NCBI GenBank assembly: GCA_016748015.1
Contig: JAAOMT010000436.1
Location: 1,768,032-1,832,031 of the forward strand
Source: Geosiphon pyriformis
Lineage: Eukaryota; Glomeromycota; Glomeromycetes; Archaeosporales; Geosiphonaceae
Length of the DNA stretch: 64,000 nt
Direction of reading: 5' to 3'
Shown here: piece after piece, positions 20,606-64,000 of the stretch
Layout of the letters: each line of letters starts with the position of its first letter
Position numbering within the stretch: the first letter of the stretch is position 1
Program-made: the position numbers and the translations under genes
The notes under the pieces: model-generated
The model's input: only the letters and a program-made list of their open reading frames with translations
Told to the model about the DNA's origin: nothing
Databases searched by the model: none

Positions 20606-22099
20606 AAATCACTATATATCTTTAATATTTAATTTAAGAATATTTTTGACAAAATTTTACAAATAGTCTTAACAAATATAATTAATTAAATATTAATTAA
20701 AATATTTTCTCATTTATAAGGCTTAAAAATTATAAAAACCTAAGCACATTTTTATTATATAGACATTAATTTAAAATTCAAATAAAAATTTAATAAAATC
20801 AGTAATAAATTAACAATATTATTATTATAATGCTTTTAAAATTTATTTAATATATTAAAAAATCTAGTTATCTTATTATCAAAAAATAATATATAATTAA
20901 TAAAAGCTTATTTAAAAAAATCTAATCTATTATTTTTAAGAATACAATATTATTTATAAAATTTAATAAAACATATTAAGCCTATTAAAAAAAAAATTTT
21001 ATTCAATATAACCTATTTTTTGGTTTAATTTTTTATAATAGAATTTATAAATAATTTAATTTTATTATAATCTAAAACAAATTTATTATTTATTATTAAA
21101 TAATTTAAAATTATCTTGCAAAATATATATTTAAAAATATTATATATTATATAACTCTTATTATTTATAAAATTTTTTATGTATTTTTTAATTGTTGTTT
21201 TAATCCAATTTATTTTAATTTTTTAAGATTATAAAGTTTTTTAACATAATAACTCTTTTTAATCTTGTAAAAAACCAAACAAATTGCATTAAATTTTACA
21301 TTTTTACAAATTAAACTTCAAACTATATTAGTTTTTTTAAAATTCAACTTTAACTATTTATTCATAAACTTGATAAAATTCATATTCAAACATAATAAAA
21401 AACACTTAAAAATCTTTAAAACCAAAAGTTTTAACTCAAAAAAACAAAATAAGTAAGAATTTTTAATATATAAATATTTAATATATTAATATTAAAAAAA
21501 AACCAAATTAGCAATAAAACTTATAATGTTTTTAAAAAAAATTTATATTTTATTTAAATTAATAACCAACTTTAAATTCTCAAAATTACTTTTCAAAATT
21601 TTTGTTTTTAATAAAATAATATTTTTAAACTCTTTTTATATTTTTAAAATTATATTTTTAGTAGTTTTTATTAAATTATTTATACAAAAAAATATATTGT
21701 CTAAAAAACTACCTAATTTTACCAAAATGCATACAATATTATAATCAATAAAAATAATTTTTGTAAATCTAAAATTTTATTTATTATTATAATATTAACA
21801 TTAAAATAAAATTAATTGTTTTACAAATATTATGTAAATTACTTTATATTAAACTTTTAACAAACAAATTATTAGAAAAAAAGTTAATCAAATTCAGATC
21901 TAATTTTTTTTATAATTAGTATTGTATTTTATATTATTCTTATTGAAATCACTTTTTAAAATTACAAATATATTTTTATTATATATTTTAATAATAAATA
22001 AATTATTAATAAAAGCTTAATTTTATTTTGTATTAATAAATATATTTATATATAAATCTAAAACCATAATTAATTGTTTGTGCTTAAATAGCAAATAAA

Positions 22100-22116
22100 T
22101 TAACAAAAATTATTTA
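22100..22116 (+). repeat. Left target-site duplication of N1
   Basis: 17 bp, TTAACAAAAATTATTTA. The right copy at 24397-24415 has two extra bases. Both align to the same spot of the LINE endonuclease gene (the segment around 36760-36785 of LINE-f, reverse strand). Confidence 0.6.
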
Positions 22117-22149
22117 ATATAATTTTAAATTCTTTGTCTTCTTAATTTT

Positions 22150-24236
22150 ATGATCATGACCAAAGCAAAAAATAAAAAAGCTCTATTTGATATTTTTCCT
22201 GAGGTATTTAATAAAATTTCAATCAGAAGAGCTCTTTTTATTATAGAAGCAACTAGACAAAACATTTTAAAAGCCTTTTTTTTTATTTAATAATCGTAAA
22301 AAGCTGCTTTTAATAGCTACTAAAGCAACTTTTTCATCTTTGACTGGTTTTTCACCAGTCAAAATTCCTTTAAAGAGACACACTTGGATTAGTTTTAATG
22401 TTGCCTTTACTCCAACTATAAGCCCAAAAGTTTTTAATAATAGACTAGTAAACAAGTTGGTTTTCTTTTCTTTAGCTTCAATATTTGGTGTTACTAGCAT
22501 CACATCTTTAAAAAAAATGGTTAAAAAGACCAAAAGTTCAGAAAAGTGGAGGCAATTGCTTGCTTTTGCTATTATTACACTGAATTTTTTTGTGGTTCTA
22601 ACTAAGATCTTAGGTAAAATTTCTATTGTATCATCTGGCATGTTATCCAAGATAGACCAAAATCAACTACTGGCTATGTTGCCAAATGTGGTGTTTTTTA
22701 GCAGATCTTTACCAGTTCTAAAAGCAAAACAATCATCTTCTGTTGGATTATCTATTCTTGGGAACTGGGCTGATCAGATAGAAACTGAATTATTTTTTCT
22801 GGTTTCTGGTATTACTACTAGTCATCAAAAATTTTACTGAATAAGTGGTTTCCACTCTGGTGCTTGGTACTATTTTTAAGATCAAATTGGCTCATATTAA
22901 GACTGTTTTTCAGTTTATACATGGTTTTTTGGATGCAAAATCTGTTTTAAAGAACAATATAAAGCTTTTTTATATGAAGTTTGCTCCTCAAAGTTCTCTG
23001 AAAGCTGCATTTCTGGTTAAGCTTACAAGCTCTGTTTGTCTTGTTACTCTCAAAGTTGTTAAGTCTTTGGTAGTTTCTGAGTCTGATTTTTCTCCTGCTG
23101 CTGTTACACTGTGTAATGTGTCTTTGGGTATGTCTGCTGTCAATATTAAGTTAGCTCTTAGTGTTTTTGGTGAAGTTTTTTGTGTTGTGCTGAAGCCTAT
23201 TGGTGTTTGGCAATATATGATTGTTTACTTTAAAGAATTAAATACTGCTGCATCTGTTCTCACTTACTAATTAGTTTTGATAAGCAAAAATAGTGTTCAA
23301 ATTTTTCTTCTCATCAATCAAAATGAGACAATTTTGTTTCATGATAAATTTAAGACCAAGTTAGTCAACTTTCTTTCTGGCTGCACTGTCTTTGAAATTA
23401 ATAATATGATTTTTCATGTTAGTGGTCAGACTTGTTTCATCCTTCAGTCTTCTAATTCTGGTTATTATTACCAGTTTGTTTTGGTTACATTTGGCTTTCA
23501 AGCTAATTTGGATCTTGCTGTTGCCAAAACTGGTATGCTAAGAAAGTGCTATATCTAATAGAAAACTCCTGGTTCCCAGTATTGTTTTTAGTGTCAAGAG
23601 ATAAACCACTTGGCTATAAACTACAAGATTGCTTTATCTCCTTTTTCTAAGGCTCTCAAGGTATTTAAACCATATTTCATTGATTTTTTGTTTTATGCTA
23701 AGGCATCTGCTTCTCCTGTTCTTTCTGAGTTTTCTTTTTTAGTGGCTTCTGTTTCTTCTGTGGCTATTGCCAATCCTTTAATGTTTTCTTGGTTAGCTGC
23801 TCTGAAATTTGATTTAGCCAAGTTGTTAATATTGGTTGAATCTATTGTTAAGTTTGTTGGTGGATTAGTAACTGCTTTTAAACAATTTATTAAAAGTAAT
23901 CTTGTATTTAGCAGCAAGTTTAAAAACAAAGTTAATAAGCTTATAGTGTATTTGAATGCTTTTAGTAAATTTGTTGGTAAGTTAAAGAGAAAGGTAGTAG
24001 CATTAAAGACTGAGTGTAGCATAAAAAATGTTGATTTGTCTGATAATTTTGGTGTTCCAGTTGGAGTAAATGATAAGGTATTTGGTAAGTTAATGGCACT
24101 CTGAGAATTTAAATCTCCTGAGATTAGGTCTAGTCTTATAAAAACAGCCAAGTAGCTTGTTGGATTGGTTCTTAGTAGTCTTACTTTGTTTGATGTAATT
24201 CAAAAGATGTCTATTTTGGATAAGTTTTTTTGTAAA
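22150..24236 (+). pseudogene. ORF of N1: nucleic-acid-binding ORF1-type protein, broken
   Basis: Starts at ATG 22150 (MIMTKAKNKKALFDIFPEVF). It shifts frame near 22290 and again near 22830 and 23275, with stops at about 23556, 23589, 24102 and 24150. Parts, in order: a basic and hydrophobic N-terminal region; a region with VSLGMSAVNIKLALSVFGEV (about 23120-23180) that looks like an RRM-type fold; a second one ending FALVTFG-like (VLVTFGFQANLDLAVAKTG, about 23480-23540); then a zinc knuckle at 23583-23624 of form C-x2-C-x4-H-x4-C in which the last Cys codon is now Tyr (TAC). The C-terminal third is rich in Leu, Val and Ser. Several stops fit CGA/CGG/TGG losing a C or G to T or A. No enzyme domain is present. 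I infer an RNA-binding ORF1-like role. Confidence 0.75.
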
Positions 24237-24244
24237 TTAGCAGT

Positions 24245-24385
24245 ATAGTATAGTCTGAACTGGTTTGAATAGCTGGTTATATGTAGAAAGTACATAAACT
24301 ATATTTAATTCTGGATTACTTAGTTTGATCCTAATTTCTAATTAATAGTTGAGTTATATTTATTAAATCTCTAATAAAAAAAAAA
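24245..24385 (+). repeat. LINE-type 3' tail carried by N1
   Basis: Matches the tail of LINE-i and LINE-f through the GGTTTGAATAGCTGGTTATA segment, the GTAGAAAGTACATAAACTA segment, GGATTACTTAGTTTGAT and the final TAATAAAAAAAAA. It can form the same 4-bp stem (ATAG/UUAU) with a CUGG loop. Confidence 0.88.
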
Positions 24386-26713
24386 TTGACAAAAATTTAA
24401 CTAAATAATTATTTATAATTACTATAATATTTATATTTAAGAAATTTAAATTCAATCTTAAAGTAAAAACAAATATTTTACTAAATTTATTTATAATAAA
24501 CAAACTTATACTTAAACAAAATTTAGTCTTAATTATAATTGAAATATTATTATTTAAATTATTATATTATTTTATAATATTATTTTATTTAATAAAAATA
24601 TTTATGTCTTTAATATTATATATAATTATTTTTTAAATTAAGTTATTTATTAAAAACAAAAAAAATACTATATTATTATTCAAATAATAAAAATCTAATT
24701 TCTTAAGAACTATATTAATTAATTTTTTAGACTATTAATATTAGTAGTTAAAATTTTTAAACAATTTATAAAAAGCTTTAAGAAATTATCTGTTATATTA
24801 AGCAAAATTAAAAACTTGTTAATAATTTGTTAATAATTATTTCTAATTTTATTTTTATATCTTGTAAAAATATTTTATTATATTTAATAATAAAAATAAA
24901 AAATATTTAATATTTAATTTGCAAAAAATTTCAAAAATATAATTTATAAAAAGTTTTAATAAATATTTCAGAATTTTCAAATAAAAATCCAAAACAAATA
25001 TTATAATATTACTGTTAAGATTATTAAATAAATTTTTTCTTAAAAAAATCATAAAATAAAACAAATAAAAAAATTGTTGATATATTATTAATTATAAAAA
25101 CTCAAGTTTTATTATTAAAAAAAACCAAATTAGTATTTGTTTTTGGCATATATATATATATAATATTTTTTATTAGTTATAAAAAGCTTAAACATTACTA
25201 TTTAATTTATTATTAAATAAATATTTATCTAAAATATGATTATATTACTTATATAAAGTGTATAAAATTAAAGTATAATAAGCTTATATATAAATAATTA
25301 AATTATACATTATAATACATATTTTTTTATCATTAAATACAAAAAAATTAGACAGATTATAAGCTATAATACTAACTAAAAGCATGTAAAAGAATATAAT
25401 ACTGGTTTTTAAAGTTTTATATTTGTTTGATAATAATAAATTTAGTTATTTGTACAAAGTTTTTTCTTAATATAATTGATCATTTAAAAACAATTAAGTT
25501 AATAATCAATATTTTTTGTCAAAAATCAATTAATTATATTTTAATTGTTTTTACTTTGTCAAATTTAGTAAGTATTAATAATATTATTATTTTAAAAAAA
25601 TTAATTAAAATCTTTTTAATAATTAGTTTTTGATTTAATTTAATATTAATTTGTTTAAAATTAATATTTATTAAAAATTTTATACTAATAGTTAGCTTTT
25701 TAATCTAATTAAAATTAGTTTTAAAAGTAAATATTAACTAAATAATTTTATAAAATTTTAAAAAAGTAAAAGTTTTTTTAAAATAATTTACTTAATAAAA
25801 CAAAATTTTAACAATTTTTAACTTATTATTTAATTTTTTTTAAAAATAACTAATATATTTATATTTAAACAAACAATTTAACAAGATCAAAATTTTTTTA
25901 TTTTTAATTGACAAAAAAATTTTTGTGTTTATTGTACCAAAAATTAACAAAAAAAATTTTTTTCAATATTATTATTATTTATATAATTAAGTACAAAAAA
26001 GATATAATAATTTTATTAAATGAAAAGTAGTAATTTAAATACAATATAATATTATATTATTATTATAAATAGATTTTTAAGATAATTTAATAAGTTTTAT
26101 AATTTGGTATTTAGATTAATAATTTAAAATTTTTTTGAAAGTTTTAGTAATAAAGTCTTTTTATATAATAAATAAAAATTTAATATAATTATAGTAAATT
26201 TTTAATGTATTTTTTTTGACTTGATAACTGGTTTATTCTGGTGTTTATTTTTTTTTAATAAAATTTTTATAATTATATTTACCCTTTTTTTTGGCATTTT
26301 TTATTAAACAATTCTTAATATTTTATTTAATATTTTTAATTAATTAATTAGTATAATAAATAATAATAAGAAAAAAATAATTAAAATAAAAATTAATATT
26401 TTATAAATAATTATAATTAAGAACTATTGTTTTAATATTATTAAATTAATATGTTTAATATTAATGACATCAAATATAAAAATTATTTAAATTTTAATAA
26501 GATGTTAAAATTTATAAATAAATAATTTTAATTATATTTTAATAAATATGTTTATTAAATTGGTTATGTTTGATTAAAATTTTTTTTTTATTAAACATTT
26601 AATAAGTGAAGCCCAACCACTATCTAATACATAGAGCCAAACTGAGACTCAAACTAAACGTGATTAACGCACTTTCTACATATGGCTAACCATTCAGACC
26701 AGACAAGGCAATA

Positions 26714-34436: not shown

Positions 34437-34625
34437 AATTTAATTATATTAAAAACTTTCTTTTGTCAATCCCCTGACTATAGCGAAAGCAAGAAGTAAA
34501 TTGATAGAATAGCTTTCTTCTTTTCCTTTTTCCCCTTTCGTCTTAAAGTTATTTCTCTCAGTACATCCCTTTTTGTTAATATAGAACTGACAGACTCTTC
34601 TGCTGGTGGTTTAGGCTCTGTTTCG

Positions 34626-36524
34626 GTGAGTTTGGGAACCCATTCTGGTGTTAAATCTAAATGCTTGGCGAGTGCTTACTCGTGTGGTGCATCCTACAAG
34701 AAATCTAAGAAGCCTGTTGTTGTCGGCGGTGTGATCAATATGTCTGCTGGTCCTCTCAGCTTGGAAGATTTGGGTGAAGCTGGTGCCAAACCTGCAGTGT
34801 CCTGGAGTAGTGATGTCAATAGTGTAGTGAGCAGTGTGAATGGTCTTTCGGATGCGGAAAATATGATGAACTTGGTTACCGAAGAAACGAGCTATGCAGA
34901 ATCTGGTGAGGACAACAACATAGACAAAGCTATGCCAAGGAAAACACATACCAGGACATATGCTCTGGGTAACCCAATGAAGCAACCCCTTTTCGACAAT
35001 GTGAGTGATGATGATAGTGCGCTGGAGCTCCCTCCTTGCTTGCTTAGTGGTTTTAATCAATTGCTGCTGCTTGTGTCATGTGCCCTGGAAAAATGAAGCT
35101 TTGATTCAACAAAATTTTTTGCTCTTGATATTGAACTTTTTGCCATTTCTGGCAAAACCAATAATGATAAATTGATCAGTTTGAAAAAAATTTTTTATTG
35201 CATTGATGGATTTGGGGGAGCCTCAACTCCTTCAAAATTCCCAGAGATCATCAGATCTTCATTTACATCTGAAATTAGTTTGAATAAGGCTTAGAAAATG
35301 GCAATTGGTGAGAAAATTTTAGTCAATAATAATCTGAGAAAAATGGGTGTCCATTCAAATCAGGAAGTGATAGTCAAGGAGATCCCAGTGGATCTTTCCA
35401 GATTGGCAGTGGAGTCAGTTTTTTCCAAATTTGGCAAGATTGTTTCAATCAAAATGCAGCTGATTGGTCTCTGGCAAAAGACTCTGGTTGAATTTAAGTC
35501 ATCTGAAGTAGCTAGTCTAGTTGCTTCCAAATGGTCAGTCCTCATGGGAAAAGATTTGGTGCATGTGGCTTTGGCAGTCAGTAATAAACAAATGTGGGTA
35601 TCAAGAGATCAGCATCAGGCTTTGCTTTATACTTTTCTGGTTGGTACCAATGCCCATGACTTTTCCAGTTTGATGGAATTATACGGTGGGAAGACTTGTT
35701 TCATTGGCCATAATTCTAATTCATATGTTTGTGATAGATGTGCTGTAATTTGTTTTGGTGATGAGGCATCCAAGTTGGCTGCTATTGGTACTGTTCTAGT
35801 TTTCAAGGGTGTGAATTTGCGTTGGGCTGGTCTTTCTTTGGCCAGTTGTACTCGTTATAAACAATTTGGTCATGTTATGGTCAACTGTTCCTTGAGTGAA
35901 GATTCTGGTGTTCATGGAAAGAGGATGGTTTCTGATCGAGATCAGATTTGTCTGGCTGGGATATATAAGAAAAAGTCGGCTTCTATTGCTCGTCCAGTCT
36001 CATTTGGTGGTAAAACATAGGCCCAAGTTGCTGGTGGCTCTCCTTCTTGTGTGGTTCTCTCTGGTTTGGCTAGTGCTGGTTTGCATTCTGGTTTGGTTAC
36101 TCCTTCAATGACAACTGATTCTTCCACCATTTCTCAATTGAATGACCAGTTGGCTATGTTGGAGCGCTCTTTGGAGCTCTTGACTGACCGCGTTTCTGGC
36201 ATTTTGGTTTAACTGGAATCCATTGGTTTGGTTCTTGTGGCGATCCCATCTCTGAGTTCTCTTCCTGCTGTTTCTAAGACTTTGGCTTCTGATGTAGATT
36301 CTGATATGATTGTGAATACTGCTTTGGTCTCGTCTGGTACTCTTCCACTTGTCATTCACAATGCTGTTGTTGAGTTCAGCTCTAGTAGTTCCAAAGTCCT
36401 TACTGCCAAAGTGGGTGGTTTGAAAACAAAGTTAATTGCTTTGGAGGCCTCAGTTGGTTTAGTTTTGGATAAGTTAAATATTTTGTGCTCTGGTTTGGAT
36501 TTGTTAGTTCCTCTGTCTTCTTAA
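34626..36524 (+). pseudogene. LINE-f ORF1: RRM-like plus degenerate zinc knuckle
   Basis: About 630 codons in one frame with four in-frame stops (35094, about 35292, 36018, 36210). The one at 36018 is TAG where relatives have Trp, and 36210 is TAA that fits a lost CAA. The first visible codon is GTG, so the original start is unclear. The RRM-like region runs at about 35330-35580 (VIVKEIPVDLSR, FSKFGKIVSIKMQLIGLWQKTLVEF). The zinc knuckle near 35845-35890 reads CTRYKQFGHVMVNC: the second Cys is Tyr (TAT), a G to A loss of a metal ligand. C-terminal third Ser/Val/Leu-rich. The stop TAA overlaps the ORF2 ATG as TAATG at 36522-36526. Confidence 0.88.
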
Positions 36525-39500
36525 TGACTCACTTAATTTGGAAATTTGCTACATATAATGTTCGTGGAATTAATGTTTCTGCCAAGCAGGAGGATGTCGT
36601 ATATTGGCATTGTGATTCTGGCAATTTGGTATCATTCATCATGAAAACAAAGTTAAGGTCTTCTACTAGGCCATAGATTGCAGATAAGTTTGACGGAGTG
36701 CGTATTTTTTCTTCAGGATTGGATAAGAGTTTTATTGGTACTGGGGTTGCAATTATTATGAACAGTTTGTTGGCTCAACATGTTTCTAAGGTTGAAGAAG
36801 TCCCTGGTTGAGTTATTTCGGTGCGTCTTTTGTTCAAAGGCAAGCTTTCAGTGACTGTACTTGGTTTGTACACTGGCGCCTCTTCGGGTGTTTGTTTTAG
36901 GCAGGCATCTAAGATTAATTCATTCATTGCTAAGGCTGTTAATGTCAGCAATTTTGTTGTTTTGGGTGGGGATTTTAATGAAAATGAATCTGGAAGGAGT
37001 GCGAGTTATGGGTTTTGCTTGGGTCTTGGTTTGGTCAATTTGCTTGCTGGCCATCAGTTGGCAAAGGCTTCTACATAGAGCAATTCGAGAGGGATAAAAA
37101 AAACTATTGATTACATTTTGGTTAGTGAGAATCTGTTTTCTGCTGTTGCTAAGCATTGGATTGGGTCAGTCTCAGAATTTTTTGATACAGACCACAAGAC
37201 TGTCATAGTGTCAGTTGGTCTGGATGGACTTTTGGATGTTCAGTTGAATAGTTTGTGCAAGCAGGCTAACAAAGATTGTTGGAAGTTCAAGGTCAAGGAT
37301 GCAGATGCTTCCAAATGGTCTGAGTTTAGAGATTGTGTTTCAGCTAAGCTTCTGTTAATCAAGAACCTTTTCTTTAACGCCAAAGCTGATGGTGATTTGG
37401 ATATCATGTGGGCAATTTTAGAAAAAGTGATGGTTAAGTCTGCTGATGAGATTTTTTCCAGACAATGGTTTAGTGAATTTCAATGTTCTAGAAATAAGCA
37501 TTCTTCAAAGTTCTTTGGGTTGGAGTTACTCATTGCCAAGATTGTTGGTGTGGTTTGCGCTGGTGACGTGCTTGAAGTTAATCATCTCATAAGGAAATGG
37601 TCTACTTTGGATGAGGCCAAAGCTTGCGCATTCTCTGATTTGATTAGATTGGATGTAGGTAGTGTGATTCTTCTTAAATATCTGTCATCAAGTCACAAAG
37701 AATACAGGAAGTCGAAGATGTTTGAATCAAGGTTGGCTGAGGAAGCTTCTATTAGGGGAGCTGTAGAGAGATGCATGGAAAGTTTTGCTTCTAATAAAGG
37801 GGACATGATAAGAAGTGTATTGGATCAGCTTTTTTGCAAGGTGATTCTTAATCATTTGGTTGTTGATGATGGCTTGGTTCTGGAACCTGTGGAAGTGAAG
37901 TCTAAGGTAGACAAGATTATGGTGGGATGGACAAGGAAGTGGGTTGTGCCTACAGTGGTGTCTAAACTCTGGGCTCGCCAGTATGCACCTCTGAATCATG
38001 TACGGGATAATGCTTTTTCTGGGATAATGCATGAAATCAGTTTGGGTAAGCTGTTTTCAGTTGTTGGGGGTCTGCCTGATGACAAGGCTGCTGGCTTGTC
38101 TGGCATTCCTAATGAGCTGTGGAAACATGGTAGTGATACAGTGTTGGGTTGCCTTCTGGAGCTGTTGAATATGTGTCTGGTTGTTGAGAGTGTGCCTACT
38201 TTGTAGAAGAGAGTGTGGGTTTCGATGATTCCAAAATCTTATGATTGGGATGGGATTCTTACAAACACTCAGCCTATTACACTGATCGAAACTGCCAGGA
38301 AGATTCTCTCCAAGGTTCTTTCTGACAGGATTTTGTCAGCTTGTAGCAAGTTTGGTGTTCTTTGTGATGATAATTTTTCTGTTTTAAAAGGTACGTTTAC
38401 CCAGTTTCTAGTGTTTGCTGTCAGCTTGATAGTTGAGGATGTTTTGAAAAAGAATCGAGAACTTTGGTTAGTGTTGCAGGATATGAGTAAAGCGTATGAC
38501 TCAGTTGGGTGGTACCACTTGGAAGCAAGCTTGAAGCGCATCAAGATGTGCAGTAGGTTCATTAGTTTCTTTGGTGGCATATACAATGATAGGATTAACA
38601 GGGTTATGACGGATTTTGGTCTGTTAGATGGCTATTGTGTACATGATGGTTTGGATCAAAGTGAGGTTTTCTCCCCCTTTCTTTGGAGAATTTTCTATGA
38701 TCCGCTATTGTGTGAGGTCAAATGGCATAAACATTTGTGTGGATACAGGATTGACACTAAGTTTGTGGTGAGGACTGACAGAATCGAGAATAGTAGTGAG
38801 ATGTCCTCCTTTTTTGCTGCTGGTGCTTTTATGGATGATACAATTTGAGTAGGAGATTGCCAGGCTTCCACACAATATGCTCTTAATATTGCTAGTGAAT
38901 TTTTTTCTATCAATAATATTTCAATTAATAATGAGAAGATGGTGGCCATTCTGATTAATCAGGGTGTCAAGATTGCTTCACTAAGTATTAGTGATCAGCC
39001 GATCTCTATAGCAAAAAAGAGTGAAGCTTACAGATACCTGGGAATCTTTTTGTTGACTAAAGGGTTGTCCAAACTTAGTTTGGCCAAGGCACACTCAAAT
39101 GTCCGTTTTTTCACCAATGTTGTACTTAGAAAAGCTATTATGGATAAACAGTTTTTTTATTTGGTCTCAGCTGTTTTGCAGCCAATTATTAGTTACAGAA
39201 TGCAGTTTAGTTTTGTCTTCTCTGGTATATGCTGCAAGTAGGACGTTTTGGTTAGGAAGGGTCTCAGATCTAAGGCTTGCTTGCCTCGTGACTTCCCAAA
39301 TGAAGCTTTGCATCATTCTTCTCTTTATGGCTTGAAGCCTTTTGATCAGATACAGTCTGAAAGCAAGGTGGCTGCTGTGATCTTTTTTTCGAATGCTCCA
39401 GGTATTCTTGGTCGGTTGTTTTTTCATCACTTCTTGGATTTGCAGATTCTTGGGTGGATGCTCTTGAATCCATTACAGTTTCCAGTCAAGCTACATGTTA

Positions 39501-41214
39501 GTTCTGTGAACAATTTTTTAGCTGGTGTGATCAGAATTTTTTTGGATTGTGAATTGTCTTTGGCAAACATTCTGTCTAGTGCTTTTAGGGATCCTGGTGT
39601 TTTTTCTATGCCTGTGATTCTGGGGGAGTCCTTGTTTCTTAGTTGTGTTCATTCTCTGAAGCATTTTGGGGTCGCCTTTGGTGACAGACTTCTTGACAAA
39701 AAGGGTGCTGTAATAGATTGGAAGACTTTTCGTCATTGAAAGAGACTTGATCCCAGGAGCCCTGTGCCTCATTGGTTCAATGTCACACATAAGTTTTTGC
39801 TAGATAGGGGCTTGGCACCATCTGCTATTGATGATGCTGGTGGTTCTTTGGGCTGTAGTGTTTTGGACTCTAAACAGTTTGCTTTTGTGCATGATGATCT
39901 GCTTGAGGTTTGGTCTGACTCTTTGGATGTTTATACTGATGGTTCATTAAAATCAGCTGGCTCTGCCAGTGTAATTAGTGGGGCCACTGCTTATTTTTCT
40001 GCTTTGGATACAGTAGTTGGTATTGGTGTATGTGGGCTTTTATCTTCAACTCTGTCGGAATTGCAGGCTGTGGCTCTTACTCTGGAATGCATTCCTTCCT
40101 CCTGTTCAGTGGTTTTGCATCTTAACAGCCAAGCTGCCATTAATGCGTGTGTGTCTGAATTGGCTTTTGTTATCCCTGACTTTTGCAATCATTGTTGGAT
40201 TGAGAGAAAACATGTTGCCAATTTGATTAGGGATAAGGATCTTGCTGTGAGTTGGGTTAAGGTCAAGGGTCATTCTGAAGTTCCTGGCAATAATCGAGTT
40301 GATGCACTGGCTGGTGAGACTGCTGGCTCTTCCATTTCTTTGCCATCTGGAGTTCGTGAGTGTTTTCTGTTGGCTGAAGGTACTGTGGTTTTGGTTAATG
40401 CTCGTCACTTTGTCAGAGATGTTTTTAGATCTGTTTGTCATGCTCGTTGGGAGGCTGGTCTGGGTTATAATGTGGTTCCAGCTATTCCATTGCAGTGTTT
40501 TGATTGGGACATTTCCACGCGGGTCTGGCATCCTGACTTGCCATGCTTGCTGAATTTACCAGCCGGAAATTGGCAAGTTTTCGCACATACTTGATGAAGG
40601 CTCTACATAGAAGATTGCTGGTGGCTGTTCGCAAAAAATTGTACAATAAATGTTATCCTGGTGTTCAGTGTTTATTGTGCAGTGAGGTGGAGTTGCCCGA
40701 CCATGTTTTTACTTGTTCTCGAGATGTTTATGTGTGGGGGGATATTCTGTCAAAGACATCTGCTCGTTGGATTTCTGTGGCTGGTGTGTGTAACTTATCT
40801 TCTTTCTCTGTCTTAAGGACTCTTGATCTTTGCTGGTTGGACGTTGGCTTGTATTCAGTTATGTGTAGAGAATTTGTGTTTAAGGATTGGTGTACAGAGG
40901 CTGTTGGCATTTTTGAGGATGTTAAGTGTGCATCTGGTATGGTTGTTGACTTTGTGAGGTATTTGGTTGAGTTATATTGATCTAAGGTGTGGTTGGCTAG
41001 GTCTAAATTTAGGGTGGACATAGAGAAGGCAGGTTTGGTTGGTAATAATGATTTGGTATTAGGGCTGTCGCATTGTATGACTTTTATGCTTTCAGATGGG
41101 GTGATCAGGTTGCTTGGCATTGTGGAGTCTTTTGCTGTAAGTTTTGGCCATCGCAGGTCTTGTCCTTTTTTTTCCAGTTTGGATGATAATCTATGTGTTA
41201 GTTTGAATGTATAG
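36524..41214 (+). pseudogene. LINE-f ORF2: endonuclease-RT-RNase H polyprotein, broken
   Basis: About 1,560 codons. The endonuclease (36524-37250) has TYNVRGINV, GGDFNEN (about 36967) and TDHKTVIV. Its catalytic Glu position reads IMKTKL (Lys). RT: GLPDDKAAGLSGIPNELW (38070), AYDSVGW (38492), SPFLWRIFYDPLL (38680) and catalytic FMDD (38829-38840). RNase H: YTDGSLK (39932), ELQAVALTLE (40060), HLNSQA (40119), where the usual Asp is Asn, and KGHSEVPGNNRVD (40264). Zinc finger CLLC...DHVFTC (about 40670-40720). Stops at 36674, 36809, 37076, 38204, 38846, 39239, 39737 and 40978; most replace Trp (TGG to TAG or TGA). One frameshift lies near 40560, between RNase H and the zinc finger. Otherwise the frame is kept over 4 kb, so decay is by base substitution. 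Confidence 0.92.
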
Positions 41215-41349
41215 TGTTGTCTTGTTTGGCCCGAGTGGCTAGCCACATGTAGAAAGTGCATGAATCACGTTTAGTTTGAGCCATTTGGTTTGGTTCTATG
41301 TACTAGGTAGCAGTTGGGCTTCACTTGTTAAAATAAATAATAATAAAAA

Positions 41350-41362: not shown

Positions 41363-41438
41363 TTTTAATAATAAAACAAATTAAATATATATTAATTTTT
41401 TTTTTAAATTTTATAATCATAATTAAAACAAAAAATAA

Positions 41439-43030
41439 AAATTGGATCTCTGTGGTCTAGTTTCTGATTGGTTCAGTTTTTTTGTTGCCTTTCTCAATAA
41501 TATGGCTTCTTTTCCTGTTTGTCTTTCTAATCTTGAGAGTGCTGAAGGCTTTTTGAGTATTCTTGGGTTTCGGGAGTTTAAGTTAGTATGTGATTAATTG
41601 TCTTGTGTCAGTGCTGGTTGTCTATCTGTCTATACAGATAGTTCTCTAAGGGATTTAGGCATCATACAAAAAAAGACTGGTGCTGCTGTCTTTTTTGAAG
41701 ACATTAGTCTAGGTTTGGGTGTAAAGATTTCTGGTTTGTTGTTTTCTACTTTAATAGAGCTACAGGTCATAGCTTTAGTGTTAGAATGTGTTTCTCTTTT
41801 TAGTTCAATATACTTATATTCTGATAATTAAGCTGCTCTGGATGCATGCAAATTGAAATTGCATCTAATTTGTCCAGATTTTTGCAATTGGTATTGGGTG
41901 GAGCATCAGCATATTGTAGACATTATCCATTGCAAAAACTTAAAAGTGGAGTGGCTTAAAGTAAAAAGTTACTTAAGTGTTATGGGGAATGATCATGTGA
42001 ATGCTTTTGCTGCTGTTGCTTCTCTTTCTTATTAGTTTTTTTCTCTCTGTTTGAAGAGACATTGCCTTTTGGCTGGTGGTGATCTCATTTCTGGTAATTT
42101 TAGGCATTTTGTTCAGGATGTATTTAGATTTGTTCATCATATGGATTGGGAGGTTGGTTCTAATTCCAATGATATTGAACATTGATTGATTGAGTTCTTC
42201 TTCAATGTGGCATCCTGATTTGCATATGGCTATGAATTTTACAAGCAAATCCTCTGCTGGCTTGCGTACATATTTTATAAAGGTCTTATATTATCAACTA
42301 TTTGTTGCAGTTCGGAAGTGATTCTACTCCAGATATTACCCTAGTGTTTTGTGTTTGTTCTGTGGTAATATGGAGATTTCTGATCATGTTTTTTCTTGCA
42401 AAATTGACCTCCCTTCCCATTGTCAGTTGTTAAGTACCCATGTGGCTTTCTGAGAGCAGATTTCCAGTCTTTTATGTTTTTTTTCCTGTGTGTTTCAGCT
42501 TTTGTTATTATGTACTTCTAATGTTTCTGTATTCACAGCCCTCTGCAAAGATTTTGTTTTTAAAAATTGGTTTTGAAAGGCAGTATCTGTTTTTTATGAT
42601 CTTAAACTTGCAAATTGAAAGATTGTGAATTTTATGCATGCTCTTAGCCTCAGCTTTAGGGATTGTATTTGGTTGGTTTACATTAAGCATTGAGCCTTCA
42701 TGGAGAAGAACAGGTTAATTTCACTTGATAATTTGATTTCTGTTTTAGTTTTTGGAATGTTGTCAAGATTGTCTGTTGGTATTATTAGATTGCTTGGTAT
42801 TGCTGATGTTTTTGGTGTCTATTTTGGTTTTCATAAATTTTGTTCATTTTTTTCTGGTACTGGTAATGATGTTTCAGTTCACATAATTGCTTAATGTTGT
42901 TCTGATCAGTCTGAGTGGCTGGTTACATATAGGAAGAGCATGATTCATGCCTAGTTTAGATTACTTAGTTGATGTATTGTATTAGGTAGTGTTTAGATCT
43001 TACTTATAAAGCATTAATAATAAAAAAATT
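41439..43030 (+). mobile_element. LINE-g: 5'-truncated LINE inserted in N2
   Basis: Holds the last third of ORF2 and the tail (42895-43030). It starts at TTGGATCTCTGTGGTCTAG, equal to position ~52776 of LINE-i (just before RNase H). RNase H: VYTDSSLRD near 41627, ELQVIALVLE near 41757, YSDN near 41817 (Asp kept). Zinc finger CLFCGNMEISDHVFSC near 42351-42400 is intact in sequence. ORF2 C terminus MEKNRLISLDN...FGFHKFCSFF ends at 42894. Stops interrupt it (for example 41595, 41829, 42033, 42184). Protein and tail are closest to LINE-i. No duplication could be fixed because both flanks are A-runs. Confidence 0.85.
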
Positions 43031-44816
43031 AAAAAAGTCTTAAATATTACTTTTTTTATAATAATTAATAAAGTTTCAACAAAAAAGAGTCTTTTATTTG
43101 TTAAAACAATTAGATAAAATATCTTAACAATATTTTTTTAAATATTAATAATAAAAACTGTTTTTGGTAATTTTTAAAACATTTTTTTTTAATTAATAAT
43201 TTTTTTCTAAATAAAGTTTTTTTTAAAAAACATATTTGAATCAATTTTAGTGTTATTTTTACTTTTTTTAAAAGCTTTTAAGTTTTTAATAATAGACTAG
43301 TAAACAAACTGATTTTTTTTGTTTTTATTATTAATATTAATATTATTACTTTACAAATAACCAAAAAACCAAAAACTTTAAAAAATAATAGCAATTATTT
43401 GTATCTATTATTATTATATTAAACTTTTTTATAGTTTTAAATAAGATCTTAAATAAGATTTTTTTAATATAAACAATATTAACAATAATATATTTTTTAA
43501 AATAAACCAAGTTTAATTACTAATTATATTGTTAAATATAATGTTTTTTAACAAATTATTATTAGTTTCTAAAGCAAAACAACTTTTTAAGTTATTTAAT
43601 TTTAAGAATTAAATTAATTAAATAAAAACTAAATAAGCTTTTTTTTTGTTGTTTGGTATTGTTTCTAATAATATCTGAGAAACAATTTTTAATTATTAAA
43701 AATTCTTAAATAGATAATTTTTACTTTAATATTTAGTATTATATTTAAAATTAAATTGGTTTTAATTAATTTTTTGTTTTATTTACTGTTTAGTTTTGTT
43801 AGATTTAAGTTAGTTTTAAAGAATAATATTAGATTATTCTGTATAAATTTTGTTTTCAAGTTTTTTTTTAGTTACTATTATCAATATTGTTATTAATGTT
43901 TTTTTTAACTATACTTAAAATTGTAAAATTTTCTGTAATAGCTTTTGGTTTTTTTCACTTTTGTTATACTTTATAATATTCTTTTTGGTATATTTTTTAA
44001 TAATATTAAAAATGCTTTTAGTGTTTATTTTCTTAACTTTTATTATTATTGATATTTTGCTGTTATAATATATAATTTTTATAAATATTTGAATTTTGTT
44101 ATTATTAAAACTAGTATTTTATACAAATATTATATTTAATAAAAAACTTTTGAATATTGTTATTATTATAAATACCAAAATTTGGTTTATTTATTTGTTA
44201 ATTATAAGATTTTATGATTTTTTTATCTTAAATTTACTATTAAATTTGTTGTTAGTTCCAGATCTTTTGGGTTATTTTTTATTAACAAAAAATTTTATGT
44301 TAAGATATTTTTTTTGACATTTTTTTTATTATTTATTTGATTGTTTTTGCTATTAATTTTGTGATTAAGTTTAAGTTAATTTTTTTAAAAACTCAGATTT
44401 TGAGTTTGGTTGCTTTAATAAAATTTGTCATAAAGCTTATTGGTTTTTTGATTATTTTGGTTATTATTCTTTTGAATAATTTTTTTGTTTTATATATAAA
44501 GCTTAAAAGTATAATTAGTATTATTTAGAATAAAATATTTGTTCTTAATAAAACTGTAAATTAGTTTTTTATAAATATAATATTAATTAAAATTAAATAT
44601 AGATTTAATATTAATTTTAAAAAAATATAATATTAATTTACTTGATAATAAACTTTATATTAAGTTGCTTATTTTTTAAAAATATTAATTTAATTTTGTC
44701 AAATTTAATATAAATACAATTATTGTATAATTAAGTAATTTTATTAAAAATAATAGTATACTGATTATTATTATAAGTAAAATATCTTTTTAAAATAAGT
44801 TTTTTTTATAGTTTTA

Positions 44817-44958
44817 ATGTAATAGTTTCTTAATTAATTTAAGTGACTAATTATATGTAAAAAATATATAATTTCTATTTAACTTAAATTATTTTGTTTA
44901 ATATATTATATTAAGTTGTATTTGAATTTTACTTGTTAAATTAATAAAAAAAAATAAA
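44817..44958 (+). repeat. LINE-type 3' tail carried by N2
   Basis: Same order of segments as the other tails (AAGTGACTAATTATATGTA, AAAATATATAATTTCTATTTAA, TGTTTAATATATTATATTAAG, CTTGTTAAATTAATAAAAAAAAA). Shows that both ORF1-only copies end in the LINE tail. Confidence 0.82.
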
Positions 44959-46439: not shown

Positions 46440-47381
46440 TTAAAAACTCGTTAAAAAAAACATAAAAACTACATAATAATATAAAAAAAATATGATAATA
46501 TAAGATAACAAAATAATATAAAATAATACAGAATAATATAAAATAACTCAGAATAATACAAAATAATACACAATAACATAAAATAGCACAGAATAAATAG
46601 TAATAACATAAGATAACTAATTATAATATAAAAGAACAAAATAATAACTAATAATAACAAGCAATTAAAAGCAATTTTATAAAACTAAAAAATATGTATA
46701 AAAAAAATAGTTTTAGCAGATAGAAAAAAAATAAACTAAACAAAAATCAGCTTAATATTTTTATATTATTCTTAATTTCAGAATTTTTATCTTTTTTTTA
46801 TCTTTTATATTTTAAATTTATCAAATAAAATATTATTGTTTAATTTACAAATTTATAATTTTAATACTCTAATTGTCAAGATTTGATTAATTGTTTTTGC
46901 TTAATTTTGTTTTAAGCCAAATACTATTAGCATAAATGTTTTTGAAACTTTAATGATTTAGACCAATTATTCTTAATCACAGTAATTGACAAGATACTAA
47001 ATTTTTTTTTTATAAAATAGCAACATTAAAAATTAATTGTTTGATAATAAATTTTATAATAATTTGGTAAAAAAAAGAAACTTTTCTTAAGATTAGATAT
47101 TAATTTTATCTTGTTAACTTACCAGAAAAATAAAAAAATAATACTTAATTCTAATAATTGTGCTTACTTACTTAAAAAAAAATACAATTATAGTAACATA
47201 ATTAAAAAAACAATATCTTTATATTTTATAATAAAAAAACTTAATAAATAAAATTTTAACAAAAAAACCTTCAAAAATTAATAACTTATAATATAATTAA
47301 AGCCAATTTATTTATTTTTCATATTGTTCTTAATATTAAATTATGAGTATTAAATATTATGATTATACTTTACTAAAATTA
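46440..47381 (+). repeat. 5' LTR of R2
   Basis: Aligns throughout with 61815-62751. Landmarks: a run of AATAATATAAAATAATAC-like units at 46470-46620, AAAAAATATGTATAAAAA near 46690, CTAAACAAAAATCAGCTTAA near 46737, AATTAAAGCCAATTTATTTA near 47296. The AT-rich unit run makes it look like a microsatellite, but it recurs in the 3' LTR. Confidence 0.85.
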
Positions 47382-47605
47382 TCTATAATATTTAGTGTTT
47401 TTTATAAGGTTATAAAATTTATAAAGACAAAGCATCCAAAAAACTTACAAAGTAGTAATTATTGAAACAGTTAAAAAAAATACTTGTTTTTTGAAAAAGC
47501 ATTATATCAATATTTTTAAGAAAATTTAAGAATTTAGAAAAAAAATTTGCAGTTAAAAATGATTTTTTTTACTATATATATATTAAGATTGACTATTATT
47601 TAGAC

Positions 47606-61814: not shown

Positions 61815-62751
61815 AATTAAAAACTTTTTAAAAAGACATAAAAACTACATAATAATATAGAAAAAATGTAATAATATAAAATAATACAAAATAATACAAA
61901 ATAATTTAAAATAATTTAAGATAACACAAAATAATATACTATAATACAAAATAATACAGAATAATTAATAATAATATAGAATAACTAGTTATAATATAAA
62001 AAAACAAAGCAATAATTAAAATAGCAAACAATAATTAATAATAATAAACAATTAAAAACAATTCTATAGAATTAAAAAATATGTATAAAAAGAAATAGTT
62101 TTAATAGATAGAAAAAAAACAAACTAAACAAAAATTAGCTTAATATTTTTATATTATTCTTAGTCTTAAAACTCTTTTTTTTATTTTAAATTTATCAAAT
62201 AAAATATTATTGTTTAATATATAAATTTATAATTTTAATATTCTAATTGTTAAGATCTAATTAATTGTTTTTAATTATTTTTATTTCAGATCAAATGCTA
62301 TTAATATAAATATTTTTGGAAATTTAATAACTTGAATTAATTGCTCTTAATCATAATAATTAACAAAATACTATTTTTTTTTTTATAAGGCAATAACATT
62401 AAAAATTAATTATCTAAGAATAGTCTTATAATAATCTAATAAAAAAAAATCTTCTTTTAAGATTTGATATTAACTTTATCTTATTATTTTACCAAAAAAA
62501 CAAAAAAACAATGCTGAATTTTAGTAACTGTACTTACTAACTCAAAGAAAAATACAATTATAGCAACACAATTAAAAAAACAATATCTTTATGTTTTATA
62601 ATAAAAAAACTTAATAAGTAAAACTTTAAACAAAAAAACTTTTAAAGATTAATAATTTATAATATAATTAAAGCCAATTTATTTATTCTTTATACTGTTT
62701 TCAATATTAAATCATAAGCACTAAAATTTATTTATAATAATGGCCAAAATT
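61815..62751 (+). repeat. 3' LTR of R2
   Basis: Direct copy of 46440-47381, for example CTAAACAAAAATTAGCTTAA near 62124 and AATTAAAGCCAATTTATTTA near 62667. LINE-h coding remains begin right after it. Confidence 0.85.
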
Positions 62752-64000
62752 ATTAAAAATAAACAAATATAAAATTTAAGAGACTGTTATTATATTCTTT
62801 TATATATATTATTAATAAATATTTTTGTTTATAATTTCTTAGATTTAATTTTATTTTATAATAAAAAGACATGTTATATTTTAGGTAACTTTATTATATA
62901 TATACAAATATATTGTGTTTGTTTTAATTCTGTTATTGTCAAAGATATTATTATTTATTTTATTTTATTTTTTAAAGATATTATTCTGATTTGAATTAGA
63001 TTATTAACTTCAAAGTATATTAAATATAAAAAACACAATTATATTTTTAGTATATGTAAACTAGCTTTAAAATTATTCAGTTGGGACTTGAAAATTTTTT
63101 TGAAACTAACAAAAAGCATTTTATATATATTTATGCAAAAAAGTAAATTTCTGTATTTTATTTAATATTCTTTAGTAATATGACTTGGGCTTTTATAGTA
63201 AATAATATTTTAAAAAGTTTTTTTTTATGTTATTTATTGGTATTTTTTTGGTAAAATCTTTATTTAATGCTTTTAATAAAGATTTTATAACTTTAATTTT
63301 GGTCTTTTATTTAGATATTCTGGAATGTTTTTTAAAATTTTTGTTCAACTATGTTGTTAAAATTTTTTACAAACTAATTAGTTTTTGTTTGTTAATATTA
63401 TTAATATATACTAAAAAAACACTTATATTAACTGTTAATTTAGAACTTAATATAACTGCTAATAAATTATTGCCAAATTTTTATGTGTTATTTAATATTA
63501 CTAACATGTTCTAAAAAATTTTTCTAATAATTTGAAAATTTTATCCACCAAAATTAGTAATTTAAAATCAATATAATAGTTTAAAAGATTTAATAAAATT
63601 TATTTTAGATAAGTTAAAATTTTTTAGTTTAACTAGTAATATAATATTTTTTTTCTATTTTTAATAAATAATTTAACTTAAAAAATAGTTACATGTAATA
63701 TTAAAAAAATAAATATTTTTATTAAGTAAAATAATATTATTAAATAACATAGAAAATTAAAAAATAATATTTTAATTGTTATTAAAACTAAGCTTTGTTC
63801 TAATATTAAGTCTTTGTAAATAAGTTTATTAGTATATAGATATTTACTTCTAATTTAAATTCAGAATATTTGAACATTAGTATTATATTAATTATAAATA
63901 AATACTTGGTTAAACATGTTTTTAAAATTTTAAAAATTCCTAATAGGCTTTTAATAATTTATTTATTGTTTAAAAACAAACAGTCAGTTTTTGTATTAGG

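What the first reader, a model, noticed from the sequence alone, without database searches (positions are those of the whole stretch)
22117..24390. ORF1-only element N1 carries an unrelated ORF1 but the LINE 3' tail
N1 has one ORF with a zinc knuckle, no endonuclease or RT, and ends in the same ~135-bp tail as the autonomous LINEs. Its ORF is not a deletion product of the local LINE ORF1: the sequences do not align. It is bracketed by a 17-19 bp target duplication inside LINE-d. This is the arrangement expected of a protein-coding non-autonomous partner that borrows the LINE machinery through tail mimicry, comparable in idea to HAL1 (ORF1-only L1) or tail-sharing SINEs, but with a different ORF1.
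Basis: partly seen in the sequence, partly recalled or inferred. Interest (0 to 1): 0.82.

Follow-up and report, generated by a model that had tools for sequence, protein, structure and literature searches.

The report
LINE-related jumping gene lacking reverse transcriptase
N1 is an old, broken copy of a large family of about 2.3-kb jumping genes that code for only the RNA-binding protein of a LINE retrotransposon and appear to borrow the copying enzyme of full LINEs through a shared, folded RNA tail; such "half-LINEs" are known elsewhere, but this one is unusually long-lived and divergent.

Summary
The observation largely holds: N1 (22130-24382) has one disrupted ORF with a decayed zinc knuckle, no EN or RT, a LINE-type 3' tail (24244-24376) and a 15-bp target duplication (22097-22111 / 24383-24397, 14/15). 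One central claim is wrong: the ORF is not unrelated to LINE ORF1. Its central ~250 aa (RRMs plus CCHC) are homologous to the local LINE ORF1 (hmmsearch 2e-24; hhalign 3e-16); only its first ~250 and last ~170 aa show no detectable match. Genome-wide N is a real multi-copy family: the 40 top copies of subfamily Na are (nearly) full length over 2.27 kb, target duplications are significant, and three sequenced copies have an open 701-708-aa ORF. N and LINE tails share a conserved RNA fold. dN/dS ~0.23 over the RRM/CCHC core between two subfamilies implies the protein mattered while N amplified. Best reading: an ancient ORF1-only LINE derivative, HAL1-like in layout and HeT-A-like in keeping its own diverged ORF1, moved in trans by LINE ORF2p. 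Mobilisation itself is inferred.

The parts
22097..22111 (.). 5' target-site duplication copy of N1 (AAATTAACAAAAATT)
   Evidence: 14/15 match to 24383-24397; pattern significant over 31 copies
22112..22129 (.). AT-rich filler between target duplication and element 5' end (2-28 nt in other copies)
22130..24382 (+). N1 element (ORF1-only non-LTR retrotransposon), decayed copy including its A-rich 3' end
   Evidence: 40 genome copies share the same two ends; 20-copy alignment
22130..22175 (+). conserved 5' end, weakly similar to the LINE 5' end at about 34457-34500
   Evidence: N1 majority vs LINE-e score 16, best of 500 shuffles 15; Na vs LINE-e not significant
22150..24248 (+). ORF1, broken by stops and frameshifts (about 700 aa in intact relatives)
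23091..23507 (+). RRM region homologous to LINE ORF1
   Evidence: tblastn 9e-13; hmmsearch 2e-24; hhalign 3e-16
23583..23624 (+). CCHC zinc knuckle, decayed in this copy
   Evidence: sequence; intact in L066, L068, L069; Pfam zf-CCHC 0.0027, below cut-off
24244..24376 (+). LINE-type 3' tail with conserved RNA fold (24 pairs)
24383..24397 (.). 3' target-site duplication copy of N1
21007..22100 (-). decayed host LINE (LINE-d) on one side of N1: EN 22100-21909, ORF2 fragment 21204-21007
24398..24720 (-). host LINE-d on the other side of N1, matching the LINE at 63611-63925
   Evidence: 77%, E 1e-66
43024..44954 (+). second ORF1-only element (N2 subfamily), decayed, with its own tail at about 44828-44949
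   Evidence: 66% to N1; tail hit; 40 genome copies scored
34457..41345 (+). LINE-e, candidate autonomous kin: ORF1 34500-36524, EN, RT 38207-38848, RNase H, tail 41208-41342

Best explanation
N is a long-lived, non-autonomous lineage of non-LTR retrotransposons that kept ORF1 (RRM-RRM-CCHC, type I) and the structured 3' tail of a LINE ancestor and lost ORF2. Its RNA is translated into its own ORF1 protein, which coats the RNA; the ORF2 protein (EN-RT) of co-resident LINEs recognises the folded tail and copies the RNA into an AT-rich nick by target-primed reverse transcription, leaving 8-17-bp target duplications. Shown here: anatomy, copy family, absence of ORF2, target duplications, ORF1-core and tail homology, conserved tail fold, purifying selection on the ORF1 core between subfamilies, and LINEs with long open ORF1 and ORF2 frames in the same genome. 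Inferred: the use of LINE ORF2p, tail recognition, the need for N's own ORF1p in cis, and origin by loss of ORF2.
For: 40 copies of the N1 family with common ends; the 40 top copies of L068 (Na) are colinear, nearly all over essentially all 2276 bases, 89-93% identical. ORFs of 701-708 aa without stops in L066, L068, L069. 0/16 unbiased N copies followed by EN/ORF2 in sense, 15/16 followed by the tail, whereas at least 18 LINE ORF1 matches have an RT match 2.89-2.91 kb downstream on the same strand. Target duplications p <= 5e-5. ORF1 core homology 3e-16. Tail homology 29/29. Tail fold: 94.6% of cells paired, 71 cells with both-sided change against 28 in shuffles, 32-41% paired when slid. dN/dS 0.23 in codons 250-500 between the N1 and Na majorities. 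LINE ORF2 frames open up to 1285-1521 aa.
Against: No LINE with an N-type ORF1 or a nearly identical tail was found, so the supplying LINE is unnamed. No expression or mobilisation data. Tails of different N subfamilies are no closer to each other (56%) than to LINE tails (about 55-66%), so recognition by one RT is not assured. dN/dS rests on majority sequences of decayed copies (only 4 for Na). The 5'-end similarity is weak.
Confidence: 0.8

Rival explanations
1. N is a set of repeated, recent ORF2 deletions of an unsampled LINE family that carries an N-type ORF1 (HAL1 in the strict sense).
For: HAL1 arose several times from L1 (PMC5753468); LINE sampling here is limited (best 150 of thousands of candidates scored).
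Against: No N-type ORF1 linked to ORF2 in the 44 tail-selected (these include the 4 copies L066-L069) and 16 unbiased copies read. ORF1 segments in the held loci fall into two clear groups without intermediates. At least three subfamilies (N1, Na, N2) are all ORF1-only.
Confidence: 0.12
2. An unrelated host or viral RNA-binding gene captured a LINE tail.
For: First ~250 and last ~170 aa have no detectable LINE match.
Against: The central 250 aa are homologous to and collinear with LINE ORF1, including RRM spacing and CCHC; the 5' end is also LINE-like, though weakly.
Confidence: 0.04
3. N ORF1 is a domesticated multigene family (as proposed for EKA effectors of powdery mildew) with incidental LINE flanks.
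For: Powdery mildew has over 1350 EKA genes derived from LINE ORF1, and most 'Kryze' full-length ORF1 copies lacked ORF2 (PMC4641428).
Against: Fixed ends, A-rich 3' end, target duplications at copies and heavy neutral C>T decay of most copies are those of a transposon.
Confidence: 0.04

Closest known systems
HAL1 (half-L1) of mammals
   Same: ORF1-only, LINE 3' end, needs LINE ORF2p; described as encoding only ORF1p and as having arisen several times (PMC5753468)
   Different: From general knowledge, HAL1 ORF1 is close to its parental L1; N ORF1 core is only 23-26% identical to local LINE ORF1 with different ends, is type I (RRM-CCHC), and has a structured tail
HeT-A of Drosophila telomeres
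   Same: Encodes its own Gag/ORF1 but no RT, relies on RT of TART or TAHRE (PMC5537684), persistent over long times
   Different: HeT-A adds to chromosome ends in head-to-tail arrays; N inserts at interspersed sites with target duplications
Tail-sharing SINEs (eel UnaSINE1 with UnaL2)
   Same: Shared 3' sequence with a LINE used for trans mobilisation (Kajikawa and Okada 2002, cited in PMC2881922)
   Different: N is a ~2.3-kb protein-coding element with its own ORF1, and the tail is about 55-66% rather than nearly identical to sampled LINE tails
Kryze/EKA LINE ORF1 copies of Blumeria graminis
   Same: Fungal LINE ORF1 present in many copies mostly without ORF2 (PMC4641428)
   Different: There interpreted as degenerate or co-opted copies; no defined ends, tails or target duplications described in the passages read

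Membership tests
HAL1-like (ORF1-only LINE derivative) | ORF1 without EN/RT in the family, not only in one copy | tested here: met
   0/16 unbiased copies with ORF2; 40 top Na copies fit ~2.27 kb
HAL1-like (ORF1-only LINE derivative) | ORF1 homologous to a LINE ORF1 | tested here: met
   core only: 3e-16, 2e-24; ends not
HAL1-like (ORF1-only LINE derivative) | Ends and target duplications of LINE retrotransposition | tested here: met
HAL1-like (ORF1-only LINE derivative) | Derived from an identifiable autonomous LINE of the same genome | tested here: inconclusive
   no LINE with N-type ORF1 or near-identical tail found; sampling limited
HAL1 proper (L1-derived, mammalian) | L1-type (type II) ORF1 | tested here: not met
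   N ORF1 has RRM + CCHC (type I), Pfam RRM_1 7e-7 in L069
HeT-A | Terminal insertion in head-to-tail telomeric arrays | tested here: not met
   interspersed insertions with target duplications
HeT-A | Own Gag/ORF1, RT supplied in trans | not testable with these tools
   own ORF1 shown; trans supply needs an assay
Tail-sharing SINE | 3' end nearly identical to the partner LINE and structured | tested here: inconclusive
   structure conserved; mean identity of the N tail groups to the sampled LINE tail groups only 55-66%
Tail-sharing SINE | Short, non-coding, RNA polymerase III head | tested here: not met
   2.3 kb with a ~700-aa ORF

The most novel reading that the evidence does not exclude
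An interspersed ORF1-only lineage that split from the genome's sampled LINE ORF1s before these diversified, has kept its own selected ORF1 with novel N- and C-terminal parts ever since, and swaps 3' modules (C-terminus plus tail) between lineages, making N and the LINEs a stable two-component retrotransposition system.
Probability: 0.3. Interest if true: 0.72.

Novelty: new variant of a known kind. Interest (0 to 1): 0.52.

Why it matters
ORF1-only LINE parasites are known mainly as recurrent L1 offshoots (HAL1) or as the telomere-bound HeT-A. An abundant interspersed lineage with a diverged ORF1 under purifying selection, many copies and a conserved RNA tail fold would show that an RT-less element can persist by supplying its own RNA-binding protein and borrowing only EN-RT. 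It offers a way to separate the cis role of ORF1p from tail recognition by ORF2p. It may also account for part of the repeats that stay unclassified in such genomes (PMC11075540 reports two-thirds of Rhizophagus irregularis TEs as unclassified), if this is a related fungus, which was not tested.

Tried and rejected
A target-duplication search anchored at the element's 5' end gave only a weak signal; anchoring at the end of the A-run showed that an AT-rich filler separates the duplication from the 5' end (this anchoring was chosen after looking at the flanks by eye, but the permutation control uses the same rule). Rfam found nothing credible, so there is no evidence for a 5' ribozyme. Pfam on N1's own broken frames gave nothing; intact copies were needed. 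The element at 41396-43020 first looked like an RNase-H-only family with an N-type 5' end; its genomic relatives are 3' parts of ordinary LINEs, so it is a one-off. A LINE carrying the Na tail was sought: the tails closest to it, with 13 unassigned ones read individually, lie on N elements. Solved structures: only one weak RRM match (1whx, E 0.04).

Full report
Setting. The window lies in G000, an AT-rich eukaryotic genome of 124.7 Mb in 406 contigs, full of LINE copies. From memory it resembles an arbuscular mycorrhizal fungus; this was not tested.

Observation. N1 has no EN, RT or RNase H. It carries one disrupted reading frame (ATG 22150 to stop 24246-24248; 8 in-frame stops and 3 frame-breaking codons), a decayed CCHC knuckle at 23583-23624, and a LINE-type tail at 24244-24376. 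Its target duplication is 15 bp with one mismatch (22097-22111 / 24383-24397), separated from the conserved 5' end by an 18-nt AT-rich filler. The same layout recurs across the family: over 31 copies, own flanks score 10.5 against 6.3 for mismatched flanks, and none of 20,000 permutations reached the observed mean. N1 interrupts the EN region of a decayed minus-strand LINE: EN residues 49-112 lie at 22100-21909, while the other side matches a LINE copy at 63611-63925 that runs into its EN (77%, E 1e-66). Beyond the joint the alignment with that copy is weak, so the empty site is consistent rather than proven.

The ORF is not unrelated to LINE ORF1. A LINE ORF1 query hits N1 at 23091-23507 with E 9e-13. 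A profile of 20 N copies hits three window LINE ORF1s at 2e-24, 1.5e-12 and 2.4e-12. Profile-profile comparison aligns the central part (residues ~254-505) with LINE ORF1 at 98.7% probability and E 3e-16; the first 250 and last 170 residues give nothing. Intact copies carry RRM_1 (7e-7 in L069; 8e-4, just below cut-off, in L068) and a weak zf-CCHC match, which is a type I ORF1 in the classification quoted in PMC4120745.

N is a family. N1 has at least 40 relatives at 72-80%, mostly full length. A second subfamily (Na) is younger: the 40 best copies of L068 are 89-93% identical and colinear, nearly all over essentially all 2276 bases; two match in a second piece or begin at about base 81. L066, L068 and L069 have ORFs of 701-708 aa without stops, each followed directly by the tail; L067 has one stop. 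A third subfamily (N2, window 43024-44954) also has 40 scored copies; where both blocks of a copy were found they span about 2.1-2.2 kb, leaving no room for ORF2. Copy numbers are lower bounds because only the best candidates are scored, and ranking by score favours full-length copies.

Sixteen copies were chosen by the first 478 residues only, without reference to the 3' end. Fifteen end in the tail (one of them only partly matched), none has EN or ORF2 downstream in sense, and one (L082) shows neither. In contrast, at least 18 LINE ORF1 matches have an RT match 2,893-2,912 bases downstream on the same strand. By inspection, one of the 89 N protein matches (C354) has a same-strand RT match within 6 kb, and that N copy ends in its own tail with a candidate target duplication.

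Tail. Of 74 complete tails found in the held loci, 44 follow an N ORF, 29 a LINE ORF2 C-terminus and one is unassigned. A profile built from N1-type tails alone hits all 29 LINE tails (E 7e-21 to 2e-7); a LINE-tail profile hits all 44 N tails. N and LINE tails share a predicted fold of five helices: 94.6% of cells paired, 71 cells with both-sided changes against 28 in shuffles, and only 32-41% paired when partners are slid. The number of pairs with any both-sided change is not exceptional (52 of 500 shuffles), and the fold was derived from these sequences, so the support is good but not independent. N tails are not near-copies of any sampled LINE tail (mean identity to the LINE groups 58-66% for N1, 55-64% for Na), and N tails of different subfamilies are separate lineages. 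The 40 tails closest to the Na tail include no known LINE; 13 that were not already assigned to N copies were read and all follow an N ORF.

Selection and mosaicism. Between the N1 and Na majority sequences dN/dS is about 0.23 in codons 250-500 (RRMs and CCHC), about 0.4 over codons 1-540, and uninformative beyond codon 540, where identity falls to 14-37%. The 5' part has low dS (0.13-0.28 in codons 1-330), the middle higher (0.6-0.9) and the 3' third does not align. This gradient fits exchange of 3' modules (C-terminus plus tail) by template switching, which is an inference. Of 427 differences between Na copies and their majority, 359 (84%) are C>T or G>A (ties in the 4-copy majority were broken towards C/G, which inflates this somewhat), and most stops come from CAA, CAG or TGG codons: transition-type decay after insertion.

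Mechanism. The most likely course is: transcription of N, translation of its ORF1p, RNP formation, recognition of the folded tail by LINE ORF2p, and target-primed reverse transcription. Long open LINE ORF1 frames (up to ~700 aa and more) and ORF2-type frames (up to 1285-1521 aa) exist in the same genome, so a supplier is plausible. Mobilisation, tail recognition and the cis need for ORF1p are inferred.

Relation to known systems. Functionally N works like HAL1 (ORF1-only, LINE ends) and HeT-A (own Gag, borrowed RT). It is not HAL1 proper (type I, not L1-type ORF1) and not HeT-A (interspersed insertions with target duplications). Origin by ancient loss of ORF2 is preferred over capture of a tail by an unrelated gene, because ORF1 core and tail, and weakly the 5' end (N1 majority against LINE-e score 16, best of 500 shuffles 15; not significant for Na against LINE-e), are all homologous and collinear with the LINE.

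Noticed in passing
window 41396-43020: 3' part of an ordinary LINE (RNase H to tail) joined directly to a ~45-nt N/LINE-like 5' end; genomic relatives continue into RT instead, so it looks like a single internally deleted or template-switched copy.
   Followed up: partly
N copies genome-wide, e.g. L086-L145: An AT-rich filler of 2-28 nt lies between the 5' target duplication and the element's fixed 5' end in most copies; it could be untemplated synthesis or transcription starting upstream.
   Followed up: partly
L066, L067, L068, L069: 84% of differences from the Na majority are C>T or G>A, a deamination- or RIP-like decay of repeats.
   Followed up: partly
window 46448-47390 and 61816-62761: Two related copies with 10-bp-period arrays followed by matching sequence (75-85% identical), 15.4 kb apart.
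   Followed up: no
L038 741-874: One LINE-type tail with neither an N nor a LINE ORF recognised upstream; possibly a SINE-like or heavily truncated element.
   Followed up: no
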